A stretch of 51,001 nt of DNA from Thermoleophilaceae bacterium. Its GTDB lineage: Bacteria; Actinomycetota; Thermoleophilia; Solirubrobacterales; Thermoleophilaceae. This document shows, piece after piece, positions 9,117 to 25,909 of this stretch (its first letter is position 1; the number at the start of each line of letters is the position of its first letter). Position numbers and translations under genes: made by a program. The notes under the pieces were generated by a model, which saw only the letters and a list, made by a program, of their open reading frames with translations, did not search any database and was not told the DNA's origin. The stretch spans positions 1 to 51,001 of the forward strand of contig DASUWY010000056.1 of the NCBI GenBank assembly GCA_036378175.1. Direction: 5' to 3'.

Positions 9117-9139
9117 TTTTCACAGTGCCACTATGAAAA
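9117..9139. promoter_or_regulatory. Operator O1 of the TTTTCAYA-N7-TRTGAAAA regulon
   Basis: TTTTCACA (9117-9124), 7-base spacer GTGCCAC, TATGAAAA (9132-9139). The dyad extends two further bases on each side. It lies between the divergent small membrane gene (start 9094) and the ferredoxin gene (start 9192), so it can serve both. Confidence 0.75.
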
Positions 9140-9158: not shown

Positions 9159-9181
9159 TTTGCCCACCAACACTGTGAAAA
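9159..9181. promoter_or_regulatory. Operator O1b, degenerate second copy before ferredoxin
   Basis: TTTGCCCA (9159-9166), spacer CCAACAC, perfect right arm TGTGAAAA (9174-9181). It starts exactly 42 bases (four helical turns) after O1. The right arm runs into the ferredoxin Shine-Dalgarno AAAAGGAG, so binding would also mask the ribosome-binding region. Confidence 0.55.
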
Positions 9182-9191
9182 GGAGCTGCCC

Positions 9192-9461
9192 ATGGCGTAC
9201 GTGATCGCGGAACCGTGCATCGGCGTGAAGGACCACTCATGCGTGGAGGTCTGTCCCGTCGATTGCATCCACCCGACCCAGGACGAGCCCGACTTCGACC
9301 AGCACGACCAGCTCTACATCGATCCGGCCGAGTGCATCGACTGCGACGCCTGTGTGGAGGCGTGCCCGGTGGACGCGATATTTGCCGAGGATCAGTTGCC
9401 CACCGAATGGGAGCGCTTCACCGAGATCAACGCCGCCTACTACCGGAACGGGGCCAGCTGA
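9192..9461 (+). CDS. fdxA: Seven-iron ferredoxin (3Fe-4S / 4Fe-4S)
   Basis: 89-residue soluble electron carrier. The first cluster motif is C-x7-C-x3-CP in CIGVKDHSCVEVCP, with an additional Cys in CPVDC. The second is the classical 4Fe-4S motif CIDCDACVEACP. The C-terminal tail EWERFTEINAAYYRNG is typical of actinobacterial FdxA. The ATG at 9192 is chosen because AAAAGGAG sits 8 bases upstream; the frame upstream of it reads through the operators and is not coding. Related ferredoxins in other actinobacteria are induced by hypoxia or NO (established for the mycobacterial DosR regulon). Here the two operators upstream suggest control by the local regulator. Confidence 0.93.
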   Translation: MAYVIAEPCIGVKDHSCVEVCPVDCIHPTQDEPDFDQHDQLYIDPAECIDCDACVEACPVDAIFAEDQLPTEWERFTEINAAYYRNGAS

Positions 9462-9504: not shown

Positions 9505-10170
9505 GTGGACCTGCCATTTCCCGGCAGCGAGGACGAGGTGCTGGCGCAGCCCACACGGGCGCGGCTGTTCGCGCTGCTCACGGACCTCAAGCGGCCTGCA
9601 GGGACGGTGGAGCTGGCGGAGCAGCTCGGCCTGCATCCGAACGGTGTGCGTCTGCACCTCGAGCGGATGCGGGAGGCCGGGCTCGTGGAACGGTCGCGGC
9701 CCCGGCAGGCGGTGGGCCGCCCGCGCGACGCCTGGACCATTGCGGCCGGCGCGCGGCCCGGCGGCCGAGCGCCCAGCGCGTACGCCGATCTCGGCCGCTG
9801 GCTCGCGCGGGCGATCGCACCCGGCCCGCGCCGCCTGCGCGACATCGAGGCCACCGGCCGGGAGATCGGACGCGAGCTCGCGCCGGCCAGGGGAGGGTCA
9901 CTCCGCGAGACGCTCGAGACCACACTTGCGTCCCTCGGCTTCCAGCCGCACATGCAGCCCGCAGCCAACGGGGGCGTGACCTTCTGTCTCGGCAACTGCC
10001 CCTACAGGGACGCCGTGCGCGAGAACCAGGAGGTGGTGTGCACGCTCCACCGCGGTCTCACGCGCGGCCTTCTGGACGTGCTCGACCCGAGGGCGGAGCT
10101 CGCCGGCTTCGTGCCGCGCGATCCCGATGAGGCGGGCTGCCTCGTGGAGCTGAGCGGGGTGGGAGAGTAG
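9505..10170 (+). CDS. ArsR/SufR-like HTH regulator with C-terminal cysteine cluster
   Basis: 221-residue DNA-binding protein. The N-terminal winged helix (VELAEQLGLHPNGVRLHLER, about residues 35-54, then AGLVERSRPRQAVGRPRDAW) has the layout of SufR-type regulators. The C-terminal half carries Cys residues in VTFCLGNCPY, then C-x13-C (NCP..VVC) and a last Cys in EAGCLVEL. This pattern resembles Fe-S-binding regulators of the SufR group but with different spacing. An Fe-S cluster sensing NO or iron status is plausible (inference). It lies between two operator copies in a cluster of Fe-S and NO-related genes, so it is the best candidate for the protein that reads the repeated palindrome. Confidence 0.85.
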   Translation: MDLPFPGSEDEVLAQPTRARLFALLTDLKRPAGTVELAEQLGLHPNGVRLHLERMREAGLVERSRPRQAVGRPRDAWTIAAGARPGGRAPSAYADLGRWLARAIAPGPRRLRDIEATGREIGRELAPARGGSLRETLETTLASLGFQPHMQPAANGGVTFCLGNCPYRDAVRENQEVVCTLHRGLTRGLLDVLDPRAELAGFVPRDPDEAGCLVELSGVGE

Positions 10171-10179
10171 GCGGACCGC

Positions 10180-10635
10180 CTACGGGGTGCGGCCGATCCG
10201 CACCCGCCAGACCTCCGGCCCCTGCTCCAGGTACTCCCAGCTGAACTCGCCCTCGTGCTCCGCAGCGAACTGGTAGTAGAGCGGCTTGGGGTCGTGGTCG
10301 TTGACGAGGGTGAACGCCTCTCCGGCACCCAGCTCCTCGTATGTCTCGAAGATCAACTCGTGGCGCCGAGCGGGCACTTCGGCGCGGACGTCGAGCTCGA
10401 GGTCGGAAACTGACATGCGGTTCTCCTTTTCGGTCGGGCTGAGCTTCGCTATGCCGTGCATCAGCGAGTTCACGCGCTCCGCCTCGCGCGGGTGGGAGTG
10501 GCGAAGTGCCGACCATGCCTGGCCGGCAAGGCGGTTCGCCGTCTCGGGATAGCCGGCCCGCCCGAGCGCGACGAGCGCATCGGCCAGCAGGCGGCTGAGG
10601 GCGGCGACTGTGTCCTGGTCCTTTGCTGATGGCAT
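10180..10635 (-). CDS. DUF2249 protein with N-terminal helical extension
   Basis: 151 residues. The C-terminal half (from about residue 77) is a DUF2249 domain: LIFETYEELGAGEAFTLVND, HDPKPLYYQF, then FSWEYLEQGPEVWRVRIGR. DUF2249 proteins often sit beside RIC/hemerythrin and denitrification genes. The N-terminal 73 residues form a predicted helical segment of unknown family. An internal ATG at 10416 is preceded by an excellent AAAAGGAG, 6 bases away, so a 78-residue DUF2249-only form may also be made. The outer ATG at 10635 overlaps operator O3, with GGAG at a good distance. It is divergent from the MIP18-like gene. Confidence 0.82.
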   Translation of the reverse strand: MPSAKDQDTVAALSRLLADALVALGRAGYPETANRLAGQAWSALRHSHPREAERVNSLMHGIAKLSPTEKENRMSVSDLELDVRAEVPARRHELIFETYEELGAGEAFTLVNDHDPKPLYYQFAAEHEGEFSWEYLEQGPEVWRVRIGRTP

Positions 10636-10657
10636 TTTCACACTCCGGATGTAAAAA
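10635..10657. promoter_or_regulatory. Operator O3 between DUF2249 and MIP18-like genes
   Basis: TTTTCACA (10635-10642), spacer CTCCGGA, TGTAAAAA (10650-10657), same 8-7-8 geometry as the other copies. It fills the 30-base divergent intergenic region. Its left arm overlaps the first base of the minus-strand start codon, implying leader-less or very short transcripts. Confidence 0.72.
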
Positions 10658-10665
10658 TAACACCG

Positions 10666-10995
10666 ATGGACCTCACGCAGCTGCTCACCGCACCGCTCAC
10701 GCCCGAGCTGGTGAATGAGCTGCTGCTCGAGGTGATCGATCCCGAGCTCGGGGTGAACATCGTGGACCTCGGTCTGGTCTACGACGTGCGGATCGATGGC
10801 GGCGACGTTGAGGTGGTGATGACCTTGACCACCCCCGGCTGCCCGCTCGGCGGCTTCATCGAGGACGAGATCGCCGACTGCCTCGCGCACGCGCCGCAGA
10901 TCGGGCGCGTGAGGGTGACGCTCGTTTGGGAGCCGCCGTGGGATCCCGAGCAGATGACCGACGCCGCGCGCGAGCAACTCGGATGGGTGTCGTGA
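10666..10995 (+). CDS. MIP18/SufT-like metal-sulfur cluster assembly protein (DUF59)
   Basis: 109-residue small cytoplasmic protein of the MIP18 family. It shows the signature VIDPELGVNIVDLGLVYDVRI, the conserved Cys in TTPGCPLGGFIEDEI, and the C-terminal WEPPWDPEQMTDAAREQLG. Members assist Fe-S cluster assembly or delivery (SufT) or phenylacetate metabolism (PaaD). No phenylacetate genes are present, and the neighbours are Fe-S or NO related, so a cluster maintenance role is favoured. The ATG at 10666 is 8 bases from the end of operator O3. Its TGA overlaps the GTG of the next gene (GTGA), indicating coupling. Confidence 0.9.
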   Translation: MDLTQLLTAPLTPELVNELLLEVIDPELGVNIVDLGLVYDVRIDGGDVEVVMTLTTPGCPLGGFIEDEIADCLAHAPQIGRVRVTLVWEPPWDPEQMTDAAREQLGWVS

Positions 10996-12122
10996 GGCGC
11001 GCGCCGCTCGTGGCCCTGGGCGTGACGGCGCTGTTCGCCGGCCTGTGGGGCGGGCTGCTGCGTCTCGGGCTGTCGGTGCCGGGGCAGACGAGCGACCTCG
11101 CGGAGCTGCACGGACCGCTGATGACGCTCGGCTTCCTCGGCACTCTGATCAGCCTCGAGCGTGCCGTGGCGCTGGGCCGCGGGTGGGGGTTCGCGGCGCC
11201 GCTGGCGAGCGGGACGGGCTCGCTGGCGGCCGCCGCGGGCGCGCCCGGAGGTTTCGGCCCGGCGCTGCTCGCCTTCGCCGCCGCCGTGCTGCTGCTCGAG
11301 CACTTCGTCATCGATCGCCTGCAGCGGACGGCGCACAACGCGGTGATGGCGCTCGGTGCTCTCGCCTGGCTCGCGGCCGCCGTGCTGTGGCTGGCGGGAG
11401 AAGACACGGCGCGCTTCGTGCCGCTCCTCGCCGGCTTCCTCGTGCTCACGATTGTGGGCGAGCGCCTCGAGCTCTCGCGCCTGCGCGGCCTCGGCGGCGC
11501 CAGGCGCACCGCACTGCTCGCCGCCATTGCCCTGCTCGCCGGCGGTCTGGCGCTGTCGATCCCCGCAGAGGGCGCGGGCATGCGGTTGGCCGGCGCGGGC
11601 CTCCTCGCACAGGCCGTCTGGCTTGCTCGCTACGACATCGCCCGTCGCACCGTGCATGGCAGCGGGGTGACGCGCTACATGGCGGTCGCGCTTCTCGCCG
11701 GTTATGCCTGGCTCGCGGCGGCGGGAGTCCTGTGGCTGATTCATGGACTCTCGCCCGACGGCTACGCCTACGACGCCCAGCTTCACGCCCTCTTCCTCGG
11801 CTTCGTGATGTCGATGGTGTTCGCCCACGCGCCGGTGATCGTTCCCGCGGTGCTGCGGGTGCGCCTGCCGTTCCGGCCGCGCTTCTACGTCCACCTGGCG
11901 CTGCTTCACGCCTCGCTCGCGCTGCGAGTGATCGGCGGGGACTGGGCCGGCGACCTGCGTCTGTGGCAGTGGGGCGGCGTGGCCGGCGAGCTGGCCATCC
12001 TGCTGTTCCTCGCCGTGACGGCCGCCGCCGTGGCGGAGGCCCGCCGGGGGCGGGAGGCTGCGGAGGGTCAGGCGGTGAGGCGCTCGCGCACGCGGGGGAA
12101 GAGCACGTTGTTCTCCTCGTGA
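10992..12122 (+). CDS. NnrS-like polytopic membrane protein
   Basis: About 376 residues with roughly 12 hydrophobic helices. The motif ELHGPLMTLGFLGTLISLER near the N-terminus and LHALFLGFVMSMVFAHAPVI near the C-terminal third place conserved His residues inside helices, as in the NnrS family of haem/copper membrane proteins linked to NO tolerance. Similarity is by pattern only, so it is called NnrS-like. The start is taken at the GTG overlapping the previous stop; an ATG at 10983 is an alternative. Its 3' end runs 55 bases into the convergent RIC gene. Confidence 0.75.
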   Translation: MRRAPLVALGVTALFAGLWGGLLRLGLSVPGQTSDLAELHGPLMTLGFLGTLISLERAVALGRGWGFAAPLASGTGSLAAAAGAPGGFGPALLAFAAAVLLLEHFVIDRLQRTAHNAVMALGALAWLAAAVLWLAGEDTARFVPLLAGFLVLTIVGERLELSRLRGLGGARRTALLAAIALLAGGLALSIPAEGAGMRLAGAGLLAQAVWLARYDIARRTVHGSGVTRYMAVALLAGYAWLAAAGVLWLIHGLSPDGYAYDAQLHALFLGFVMSMVFAHAPVIVPAVLRVRLPFRPRFYVHLALLHASLALRVIGGDWAGDLRLWQWGGVAGELAILLFLAVTAAAVAEARRGREAAEGQAVRRSRTRGKSTLFSS

Positions 12123-12794: not shown

Positions 12795-12817
12795 TTTTCA
12801 CATTCTAACTGTGAAAA
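12795..12817. promoter_or_regulatory. Operator O4 upstream of RIC
   Basis: TTTTCACA (12795-12802), spacer TTCTAAC, TGTGAAAA (12810-12817). This is the best copy of the palindrome, with arms extended by one more pair (C/G). It lies upstream of the minus-strand RIC gene and directly after the stop of the next minus-strand gene. Confidence 0.78.
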
Positions 12818-14452: not shown

Positions 14453-15100
14453 CTAGGCCTGGATCAGCCCACGGCGTATGGCGTACCGGGTGAGCTCCAC
14501 GCGGTCGCGCAGGCCGAGCTTGTCGAGGATGTTCTGGCGGTGGCGCTCCACCGTCTTCACGCTGATCACCAGCTCCTCGGCGATCTCCTTGCTGGTGTGC
14601 GCCTCGGCGATCAGCTTGAGCACCTCGAGCTCGCGCGGCGTGAGGATGTCCGGCTCGTCCGCGCCGCGCTCCACGTAGTCGCGGACCAGGGTGTTGATCG
14701 CGGAGGGATAGAGGAACGACTCGCCGCGCATCGTGGCGCGCGCGGCGTCAACGATGTCCTCGTCGGCGCCGGACTTGAGCACGTAACCGGACGCGCCGGC
14801 CCTCAGCGCCTGGAAGAGGTACTGCTCGCTGTCGTACATCGACAGCATGAGGACGCGGATGTCCGGGTTGCGCTTGGACAGCTCGGTGGCCGCCTGGATG
14901 CCGGTCATCCGCGGCATCGACACGTCGAGGATCGCCAGGTCGACGTCCTCGGCGAGCGCCTTCTCCACCGCCTCGGCGCCGTCCGACGCCTCGGCCACCA
15001 CGCGCAGGTCGGGTTGGGCGTCCAGCACGCGCCGGAGGCCGGAACGGACGAGCGAGTGGTCGTCTGCGATGAGGATGCGGGTGACAAGCGGGGTGGGCAC
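14453..15100 (-). CDS. NarL/DevR-type response regulator
   Basis: 215 residues: a receiver domain (acidic pair D13-D14, phospho-acceptor D59 in AILDVSMP, Lys in YVLKSG) plus a LuxR-type HTH (LTPRELEVLKLIAEAHTSKE, then VKTVERHRQNILDKLGL). It is activated by the kinase encoded one base upstream (the TGA of the kinase and this GTG are separated by a single C). The neighbourhood of universal stress proteins and nitrate reductase indicates control of hypoxic or nitrate-dependent genes, as with NarL and DosR (family knowledge). The repeated GGGGAAGACCCC sites are its most likely targets (inference). Confidence 0.93.
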   Translation of the reverse strand: MPTPLVTRILIADDHSLVRSGLRRVLDAQPDLRVVAEASDGAEAVEKALAEDVDLAILDVSMPRMTGIQAATELSKRNPDIRVLMLSMYDSEQYLFQALRAGASGYVLKSGADEDIVDAARATMRGESFLYPSAINTLVRDYVERGADEPDILTPRELEVLKLIAEAHTSKEIAEELVISVKTVERHRQNILDKLGLRDRVELTRYAIRRGLIQA

Positions 15101-15101
15101 G

Positions 15102-16082
15102 TCAGTCGCTCCTTTCGCCGGCTGCCGGCACTTCCAAACGTACCTCCACGCCGCCGCTCGCCGACGGCTTCACGGCCAGCGCTCCGTCCACGAGCAGGGC
15201 GCGCTCGCGCATGCCTCTGATGCCGCCCTGGCGATCGGGTAGCACCCCTCCTGGGAAGCCGCGGCCGTCGTCGCGGACGGTGAGCACCACGCTGCGCGGG
15301 CCGGGCTCGAGGCGCAGCAGCGCCTTGCTCGCCCCAGCGTGGCGAGCGACGTTGGTGAGGCTCTCCTGCGCCACGCGGTAGAGCGCCAACTCCGCCTCGT
15401 CCGTGAGGGGAGGCAGCGCCGGATCGAGCTCGCGCTCCACCCGCAGCCCGGTGCGGCGGCCGAACGCGCTCGAAAGCTCTGTGAGCGCGCTCACGAGCCC
15501 CAGCTCCTCGAGCATCTCGGGACGCAGCTCACGTGCGATCCGCCGCACCTCCTCGAGCGCCTGGCGCACTGCGGACTTCGTCTGCACGAGCTCGTCCTGG
15601 CGCTGCTCCGGTAGGGCCGGCGCGAGCGCGTCGAGCTCGAGCAGAACGGCGGTGAGCACCTGCCCAACCTCATCGTGCAGGCCGCGCGCGATCCTCAGCC
15701 GTTCGGCCTCCTGGGCGGCAAGGGCCCGCCTGCCGCTCTCCCGGCGCTCCGCCTCCAGCCGCTCGAGCATGTCGTTGAACGACGTGACCACCCGTCCGAT
15801 CGCGTCTCCCGGCGGCGCGGGGAGGCGCTGGCCCGGGCGCAGCAGGTCGACCGTCTCCATTCGCGCCGCGAGCTGCTCGAGGGGAGCGAAGGCGCGGCGC
15901 AGCAGCAGGTACTCACCGAGCAGAGCGGCGGAGAGTCCCACGAGCAGAACCACGGCCTCGATCAGCGCGATGTTCGCGCTCACCGTCACCGGGGTGATGA
16001 TCAGCAGAACGGTGGCGACGACGAGCACGAGCGCGCTCGCCAGGAATACGCGCCAGAAGAAGGGGAGTCGCCGAGGCAGCAT
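15102..16082 (-). CDS. Membrane sensor histidine kinase (NarX/DesK type)
   Basis: 326 residues. Two closely spaced TM helices (about 10-31 and 37-60) have almost no extracytoplasmic loop. They are followed by a HAMP segment (AFAPLEQLAARME... to about 110), a HisKA_3 dimerisation helix with phospho-accepting H136 in RIARGLHDEVGQ, and an HATPase domain with N-box YRVAQESLTNVARHA and G-box DDGRGFPGG. With no periplasmic domain, the signal is probably sensed in the membrane or cytoplasm. The gene sits in a USP-kinase-regulator operon (gaps of 18 and 1 bases). Confidence 0.94.
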   Translation of the reverse strand: MLPRRLPFFWRVFLASALVLVVATVLLIITPVTVSANIALIEAVVLLVGLSAALLGEYLLLRRAFAPLEQLAARMETVDLLRPGQRLPAPPGDAIGRVVTSFNDMLERLEAERRESGRRALAAQEAERLRIARGLHDEVGQVLTAVLLELDALAPALPEQRQDELVQTKSAVRQALEEVRRIARELRPEMLEELGLVSALTELSSAFGRRTGLRVERELDPALPPLTDEAELALYRVAQESLTNVARHAGASKALLRLEPGPRSVVLTVRDDGRGFPGGVLPDRQGGIRGMRERALLVDGALAVKPSASGGVEVRLEVPAAGERSD

Positions 16083-24685: not shown

Positions 24686-25909
24686 ATGGACCAGGAAAGA
24701 AGCCGCTCGAATCCCGTAGCCCTCGGCCTGGCGCTGAGCGCGTTCACCGTCTGCTTCTTCGCCTGGAGCATGTTCGGGCCGCTCGGCCCCACGCTCCAGG
24801 ATCGCCTCGGGCTGTCCGACTTCCAGCTCGCGTTCGTGGTGGCCATCCCTGTCGTGCTCGGCTCTGTGATGCGGATCCCGCTCGGCATCCTCACCGACCG
24901 CTTCGGCGGACGGCTTGTGTTCACTGCGCTGATGGCCTACAGCGTGATCCCGCTCGTGCTGCTCGCGCTGCTCCACAAGTCCTTCGCGCAGGTGGTGGTG
25001 CTGGGCTTCCTGCTCGGAGTGACCGGAGCGTCGTTCGCCGTCGGTGTGCCGTTCGTCAACCGCTGGTACAGCGCGGAGCGTCAGGGGTTTGCGCTCGGGG
25101 TCTACGGGATGGGCATGGGCGGGACCGTGATCGCGGCGCTCACCGCGCCGAAGATCGCAAAGCACTGGAGCCTCGCGACGCCGTTCTGGATCGCGGCGGC
25201 GCTGATGGCAGCCATGACGGTCGTGTTCTGGCTGTTCGCGCGTGACGCTCCGCGCCCCGAAAGCGCGGGCCCGCGCGCCCGGATCTCGTTCACCGCGCCG
25301 CTCGAGGTCTTCAGGCGCAGCCCGCGCGCCTGGGCGCTCACGCTCTTCTACTTCCTCTCCTTCGGCGGCTTCGTGGCGATGTTCCTGTACCTGCCGAAGT
25401 TGCTCACCGGAGTGCACCACCTGTCGAAGACGGACGCCGGCTATCGCGCCGCGGGCTTCGCGCTGCTTGCGGTGGTGGCACGGCCGGTGGGCGGCTGGCT
25501 GTCCGACCGGATCGGCGCGGAGCGCGTGCTGCGCACCTGCTTCGTGGCCACCGCCGCGCTCGCCGTGGTCCTGGCGCTGACCTACAGGCACATGGTGCCG
25601 CTCACGATCGCGTGCCTGACCATCGCCGTGGCGCTCGGCCTGGGCACGGGCGCGGTGTTCCGGCTGGTGGCCGCCTGGTACCCGCAGGAGGTGGGGGCCG
25701 TGACCGGCGTGGTGGGCGCGGCGGGGGGCCTCGGCGGCTTCTTCCCGCCGCTCGTGATGGCACTCGTGAAGAGCATCACCGGGAGCTACGTGCTCGGGTT
25801 CATCCTGCTCGCGGCGGTGGCCGTGATCTGCCTGCTCGTGCTCGTGCGACTCGAGCCACGCCGCCCGCTGCCGCAGACGCAGCTCGCCGCGCCGGGCGCC
25901 ACGAATTAG
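24686..25909 (+). CDS. narK: NarK-type nitrate/nitrite transporter
   Basis: 407-residue, 12-TM MFS protein. The nitrate signature region FAVGVPFVNRWYSAERQGFA, then LGVYGMGMGGT, and a second glycine-rich signature AVTGVVGAAGGLGGFFPP identify the nitrate/nitrite porter group. It imports nitrate or exchanges it for nitrite produced by NarGHI. It lies 70 bases after narI on the same strand. The gap has no strong hairpin, so it may be co-transcribed with the reductase. Confidence 0.94.
   Translation: MDQERSRSNPVALGLALSAFTVCFFAWSMFGPLGPTLQDRLGLSDFQLAFVVAIPVVLGSVMRIPLGILTDRFGGRLVFTALMAYSVIPLVLLALLHKSFAQVVVLGFLLGVTGASFAVGVPFVNRWYSAERQGFALGVYGMGMGGTVIAALTAPKIAKHWSLATPFWIAAALMAAMTVVFWLFARDAPRPESAGPRARISFTAPLEVFRRSPRAWALTLFYFLSFGGFVAMFLYLPKLLTGVHHLSKTDAGYRAAGFALLAVVARPVGGWLSDRIGAERVLRTCFVATAALAVVLALTYRHMVPLTIACLTIAVALGLGTGAVFRLVAAWYPQEVGAVTGVVGAAGGLGGFFPPLVMALVKSITGSYVLGFILLAAVAVICLLVLVRLEPRRPLPQTQLAAPGATN

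What the first reader, a model, noticed from the sequence alone, without database searches (positions are those of the whole stretch)
9505..10170. Candidate Fe-S-type NO sensor: ArsR/SufR-like HTH with C-x13-C cluster
The protein joins a SufR-like winged helix to a C-terminal Cys set (LGNCPY, C-x13-C, and a distant Cys). Spacing differs from SufR. It has an operator copy just before its start (O2). If the Cys set binds a cluster, NO or iron loss would relieve repression of the whole set.
Basis: partly seen in the sequence, partly recalled or inferred. Interest (0 to 1): 0.65.

Follow-up and report, generated by a model that had tools for sequence, protein, structure and literature searches.

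The report
Likely nitric-oxide-sensing iron-sulfur repressor
A soil-type actinobacterium carries a DNA-binding repressor whose three invariant cysteines, protein fold and conserved target genes indicate that it senses nitric oxide through an iron-sulfur cluster, like the Corynebacterium protein ArnR but with its own DNA site and its own set of target genes.

Summary
ORF 9505-10170 (GTG start, 221 aa) is an ArsR-type winged helix (Pfam HTH_20) fused to a TRAPP/Bet3-like C-terminal domain. In 42 orthologous sequences C165, C179, C212 and H182 are invariant; the fourth cysteine, C161, is not. The spacing C-x13-C-x32-C resembles ArnR (C-x13-C-x29-C), a proven [4Fe-4S] NO sensor, more than SufR (C-x3-C-x12-C-x27-C). 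A palindromic operator, TTTKCMYA-N7-TGTGNAAA, overlaps the putative promoter of the gene and is conserved across the order: 81 sites in 0.60 Mb against 0.05 expected. Its targets are the regulator itself, a FdxA-like ferredoxin, the Fe-S repair protein RIC/YtfE, DUF2249 and DUF59 genes, and in relatives cytochrome oxidase, hemerythrin and sometimes nar genes. All 13 sampled genomes with both regulator and RIC carry a site upstream of RIC, even on separate contigs. The suf operon has none. Best explanation: a cluster-loaded dimer represses and NO derepresses a nitrosative-stress regulon. It works like ArnR, but orthology with ArnR is not shown. Cluster, NO response and DNA binding are inferred, not measured. 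I call it a new variant of a known kind.

The parts
9505..10170 (+). regulator gene: ArsR-type wHTH (aa ~10-85) + TRAPP/Bet3-like C-terminal domain (aa 88-220) with C165, C179, H182, C212
9472..9494 (.). operator O2, TTTTCATAGTTCCACTGTGCAAA, overlapping the putative promoter of the regulator
   Evidence: conserved in 34 of 41 loci within 75 bp of the start
9117..9139 (.). operator O1 upstream of ferredoxin, TTTTCACAGTGCCACTATGAAAA
9159..9181 (.). operator O1b, 42 bp from O1, TTTGCCCACCAACACTGTGAAAA
   Evidence: the paired arrangement is conserved in L046, L062 and others
9192..9461 (+). FdxA-like ferredoxin (target)
   Evidence: NCBIfam FdxA_Actino E 2e-26, below its curated cut-off; Pfam Fer4
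10180..10635 (-). DUF2249 gene (target)
   Evidence: Pfam PF10006 E 1e-30
10635..10657 (.). operator O3 between the DUF2249 and DUF59 genes, TTTTCACACTCCGGATGTAAAAA
10666..10995 (+). DUF59 / SufT-like Fe-S assembly protein (target)
   Evidence: Pfam PF01883 E 1e-18; NCBIfam SUF_assoc, below cut-off
10992..12122 (+). polytopic membrane protein (NnrS-like by eye only), probably in one operon with the DUF59 gene
   Evidence: no Pfam or NCBIfam match; conserved neighbour in L046, L056, L074, L078, L132
12068..12766 (-). RIC/YtfE/ScdA di-iron Fe-S repair protein (target)
   Evidence: NCBIfam FeS_repair_RIC E 1e-58, 198.6 bits against a cut-off of 204.7; Pfam ScdA_N + Hemerythrin
12795..12817 (.). 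operator O4 upstream of RIC, TTTTCACATTCTAACTGTGAAAA
18046..23276 (+). narG and narH (respiratory nitrate reductase), neighbours; no operator found upstream of narG here
   Evidence: TIGR01580 over its cut-off; scan

Best explanation
The protein is a homodimeric repressor. Each subunit probably carries a [4Fe-4S] cluster held by C165, C179 and C212, with H182 (motif C-x2-H) a candidate fourth ligand. In the cluster form it binds the palindrome TTTKCMYA-N7-TGTGNAAA, which overlaps the promoters of its own gene, a FdxA-like ferredoxin, DUF2249/DUF59 and RIC/YtfE, and keeps them low. NO, made for example by nitrite reduction by the nearby nitrate reductase, nitrosylates the cluster, the dimer leaves the DNA, and Fe-S repair and electron-transfer proteins are made. 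Shown by sequence: gene, fold prediction, invariant residues, operator, target set. Inferred: cluster, NO as the signal, repression, dimer, fourth ligand.
For: C165, C179, H182, C212 invariant in 42 sequences of the order; the three cysteines align with those of presumed ArnR orthologs and of SufR. ArnR of C. glutamicum has C179-x13-C193-x29-C223, binds [4Fe-4S] per subunit, loses DNA binding on nitrosylation, and its C-terminal domain was likened to TRAPPC3 (PMC12343034); our model's residues 88-220 match Bet3/TPC6 at Z 11.8 over 129 residues. L128, a homolog from a small-genome genus, has cysteines at 179/193/224, and its ortholog L127 lies downstream of narGH. The operator lies within 75 bp of the start in 34 of 41 loci; 81 sites in 601 kb against 0.05 for column-permuted matrices. 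All 13 genomes with both regulator and RIC have a site within ~120 bp upstream of RIC, including on contigs apart from the regulator. Co-occurrence in 133 genomes: RIC 13 of 14, p 1e-5; narG 24 of 33, p 3e-6 (not corrected for phylogeny). DUF2249 genes are induced under denitrification in Haloferax (PMC11218638); RIC (dnrN) is a core member of NO regulons (PMC1274295).
Against: No biochemistry. No fourth invariant cysteine. The window's narG has no operator and no hmp was seen among targets, unlike ArnR. Some targets in relatives (cytochrome oxidase subunits, rhodanese, cupin) are not NO-specific. In genome G029, with RIC but no detected ortholog, a similar palindrome with an 8-base spacer precedes RIC, so another factor may read such sites. 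The separate clades for ArnR and this group leave orthology open.
Confidence: 0.72

Rival explanations
1. A SufR-type sensor of Fe-S cluster status, iron or oxidative stress: it loses or oxidises its cluster when Fe-S supply is short and derepresses Fe-S repair and ferredoxin genes; NO is only one of several triggers.
For: Shared architecture and aligned cysteines with SufR; targets include the DUF59/SufT-like protein and the Fe-S repair protein RIC; SufR of M. tuberculosis is itself reported to respond to NO (title cited).
Against: The genome's suf operon (G000:C51) has no site and an Rrf2 gene lies upstream of it; the SufR operator is CAAC-N6-GTTG (PMC8593673), quite different; the regulator co-occurs with nar and RIC.
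Confidence: 0.17
2. An oxygen or redox sensor for the aerobic/anaerobic switch: the cluster or the cysteines react with oxygen, and the regulon adjusts respiration (cytochrome oxidase, nitrate reductase, ferredoxin).
For: Sites upstream of cytochrome oxidase subunit genes in L055, L058, L073, L075, L082, L159 and near narG in L051, L167.
Against: RIC is the most constant distal target (13 of 13); ArnR, the closest studied relative, was shown not to be a direct O2 sensor (PMC12343034).
Confidence: 0.07
3. A metal-binding (Zn) or thiol-switch ArsR-type repressor: the Cys3His set binds Zn or forms a disulfide, without a cluster.
For: Cys3His is a common Zn set; purified ArnR held about 0.5 Zn per protein (PMC12343034); TRAPPC3 has a Zn-bound form.
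Against: Targets are Fe-S and NO-repair genes, not metal transport; homologs with the same cysteines bind [4Fe-4S].
Confidence: 0.04

Closest known systems
ArnR (Corynebacterium glutamicum)
   Same: N-terminal ArsR/MarR-type wHTH, TRAPP-like C-terminal domain, three conserved cysteines with C-x13-C, a conserved His near the cluster, association with nitrate reductase genes
   Different: Separate clade, about 27-30% local identity to its presumed orthologs L127 and L128; distance to the third Cys 32 instead of 29 residues; targets include ferredoxin, RIC and DUF2249 and no hmp was seen; no site before narG in this window
SufR (cyanobacteria, Mycobacterium, Streptomyces)
   Same: Same domain order; three of its four cysteines align; autoregulated repressor with a palindromic site at its promoter
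   Different: SufR has C-x3-C-x12-C-x27-C and no CxxH; operator CAAC-N6-GTTG; controls suf, which here has no site and lies next to an Rrf2 gene
NsrR (Rrf2 family)
   Same: Similar regulon logic: Fe-S repressor of NO defence genes including dnrN/ytfE and nnrS
   Different: Different protein family; no sequence match of the query to Rrf2 models

Membership tests
ArnR | three conserved cysteines with C-x13-C and a distant third Cys | tested here: met
   C165-x13-C179-x32-C212, invariant in 42; third spacing 32 against 29
ArnR | orthology (same clade as ArnR) | tested here: inconclusive
   query clade 99/99; presumed ArnR orthologs L127/L128 elsewhere, deep forks weak (79/48)
ArnR | represses narKGHJI and hmp | tested here: inconclusive
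   no operator before narG in the window; sites near narG in L051 and L167; hmp not searched for
ArnR | [4Fe-4S] cluster, DNA release on NO | not testable with these tools
   needs purified protein
ArnR | wHTH plus TRAPP-like C-terminal domain | tested here: met
   (Z 11.8, rmsd 3.3 over 129 residues to Bet3-TPC6B)
SufR | four-cysteine set C-x3-C-x12-C-x27-C | tested here: not met
   first Cys not conserved (C in 15 of 42), spacing x13 and x32
SufR | SufR equivalog score (TIGR02702) | tested here: not met
   23.1 bits against a cut-off of 178.8; the model is cyanobacterial
SufR | linked to and controlling suf | tested here: not met
   suf is on contig C51, without a site
NsrR (Rrf2) | Rrf2 domain PF02082 | tested here: not met
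   not among matches of the query up to E 0.1
ArsR/SmtB metalloregulator | NF033788 curated cut-off | tested here: not met
   32.2 bits against 55; HTH similarity only

The most novel reading that the evidence does not exclude
A phylum-wide family of Cys3His-ligated [4Fe-4S] NO repressors, of which ArnR is one lineage-specific branch, takes the part of NsrR in many Actinomycetota; in Solirubrobacterales it has its own operator and couples NO to Fe-S repair, ferredoxin and terminal oxidases. Homologs next to DUF2249, FdxA-like or nar genes in other actinobacterial lineages (L116-L118, L130-L133) fit this.
Probability: 0.4. Interest if true: 0.7.

Novelty: new variant of a known kind. Interest (0 to 1): 0.52.

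Why it matters
In the papers held here, ArnR and SufR are the described NO-responsive regulators of this domain order, and ArnR is known from Corynebacterium. The present clade would extend that mode of sensing to another class, with a defined 23-bp operator and a short list of targets that can be tested at once. It would also tie genes of unclear role (DUF2249, the DUF59 protein, the membrane protein) to nitrosative stress, and the invariant CxxH offers a candidate for the unknown fourth ligand of the ArnR cluster.

Tried and rejected
SufR membership: rejected on cysteine spacing, operator and absence from suf. C161 as a ligand: rejected, not conserved. Control of narG in this window: no site at the scan threshold. 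A direct comparison with the true C. glutamicum ArnR sequence was not possible; L127/L128 stand in for it by synteny and cysteine positions. Sequence search of the PDB found only the HTH. NnrS identity of the membrane protein (10992-12122): no Pfam or NCBIfam match, so left as a resemblance. G029 was used as a negative control for the RIC site, and the result was ambiguous.

Full report
Observation. The ORF at 9505-10170 (+) is real: GTG start, 221 aa. Pfam gives HTH_20 at residues 13-62, E 4e-10, and nothing convincing for the C-terminal half. NCBIfam matches are HTH-only and below cut-off, including SufR_cyano at 23.1 bits against 178.8. Cysteines lie at 161, 165, 179 and 212.

Operator. The 23-bp palindrome occurs at 9117, 9472 and 12795 with none expected by chance, and nowhere else in the 4.29 Mb genome at up to 3 mismatches. 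Weaker copies lie at 9159 and 10635. A looser pattern adds one perfect match on contig C81, between a zf-UBP gene and a membrane-protein gene, and one weak match on C34.

Orthologs. A class-wide search found 100 of 399 genomes with a match at E 1e-15 or better, most of the strong ones in the same order. I fetched 40 loci. In 42 sequences (window, these 40, and L005, which is the same locus as L062) C165, P166, Y167, C179, H182 and C212 are invariant, while C161 is not.

Conserved operator. A symmetric matrix refined on the 75 bp upstream of the regulator finds a site in 34 of 41 loci, mostly 31-38 bases before the start. The consensus is TTTKCMYA-N7-TGTGNAAA. The right arm runs into an A/T-rich element about 10 bases before the start codon, which suggests a leaderless transcript with the operator over the promoter; this is inference. 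Scanning 601 kb gave 81 sites above 19 bits against a mean of 0.05 for column-permuted symmetric matrices. About half of these were training sites; the rest are independent.

Targets. Sites precede the regulator itself, the ferredoxin (divergent or further away), RIC, DUF2249/DUF59, and in single relatives hemerythrin, cytochrome oxidase subunits, a Pyr_redox protein, rhodanese, cupin and narG. RIC is the most telling: all 13 genomes of the order sample that have both regulator and RIC carry a site of 17-35 bits within about 120 bp upstream of RIC, also where RIC is on another contig. Co-occurrence over 133 genomes: RIC 13 of 14 (p 1e-5), narG 24 of 33 (p 3e-6); these tests ignore shared ancestry.

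Fold. AlphaFold2 with 47 sequences: mean pLDDT 84, pTM 0.64. The second-look alignment places residues 88-220 on the Bet3/TPC6 TRAPP fold, Z 11.8, rmsd 3.3, 129 residues; BcsD and MopR are near in score, so this is a fold statement only. The same TRAPPC3 resemblance was reported for ArnR (PMC12343034).

Relation to known proteins. ArnR of C. glutamicum has C179, C193 and C223; it binds [4Fe-4S], is not a direct O2 sensor, and its dinitrosyl form no longer binds DNA. I could not fetch that sequence. L127, downstream of narGH, and L128, with cysteines at 179/193/224, stand in for it. SufR next to sufB (L121) and its ortholog L129 have C-x3-C-x12-C-x27-C. All three cysteines of the query align with both. 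The CxxH is shared with the ArnR-like proteins and lacking in SufR. The tree puts the query clade apart at 99/99; deeper forks are weak. SufR sites are CAAC-N6-GTTG (PMC8593673).

Wider pattern. Homologs elsewhere in the phylum lie next to narG (L116, L117, L118), beyond the end of the nar cluster (L130, L131), between DUF2249 and the membrane protein (L132), or with a FdxA-like ferredoxin and a DUF2249 gene (L133). This suggests a phylum-wide family for nitrogen-oxide stress, of which ArnR would be one branch; this is a hypothesis.

Mechanism. Steps shown: gene, invariant residues, operator, target genes, co-occurrence. Steps inferred: cluster, NO as the signal, repression, dimer, fourth ligand. 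The suf operon of this genome has no site and lies by an Rrf2 gene, which speaks against a SufR-like role.

Verdict. SufR membership fails by test; orthology with ArnR is inconclusive; it most likely works like ArnR: a new variant of a known kind.

Noticed in passing
L192:1850-1873 (G029): Genome with RIC but no detected ortholog has a similar palindrome before RIC with an 8-base spacer, TTTACACA-N8-TGTGTAAA; unexplained.
   Followed up: partly
L125:4205-4906 and L126:5067-5675 (own genome, contigs C68 and C67): Two distant paralogs with CPC instead of NCPY and without the CxxH histidine; function unknown.
   Followed up: partly
L153:3341 (own genome, C81:15340): Perfect operator match between a zf-UBP gene and a membrane protein without Pfam match; a protein that looks like a homolog of the membrane protein has a site in L082.
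   Followed up: partly
L133:8224-8250: Streptomyces-like locus: homolog in one direction with a FdxA-like ferredoxin, divergent from a DUF2249 gene, with a palindrome-like TTTTTACGAATACTACATGTAATAATT between them.
   Followed up: partly
window 14453-16082 and 24686-25909: Two-component pair (LuxR-type regulator and kinase) upstream and a NarK-like transporter downstream of the nar operon, by eye.
   Followed up: no
L055, L058, L073, L075, L082, L159: Operator copies before cytochrome oxidase subunit I or II genes, which links the regulator to terminal oxidases.
   Followed up: partly
L157 and L163 (G286): Some genomes hold two regulator copies, each with its own operator.
   Followed up: no
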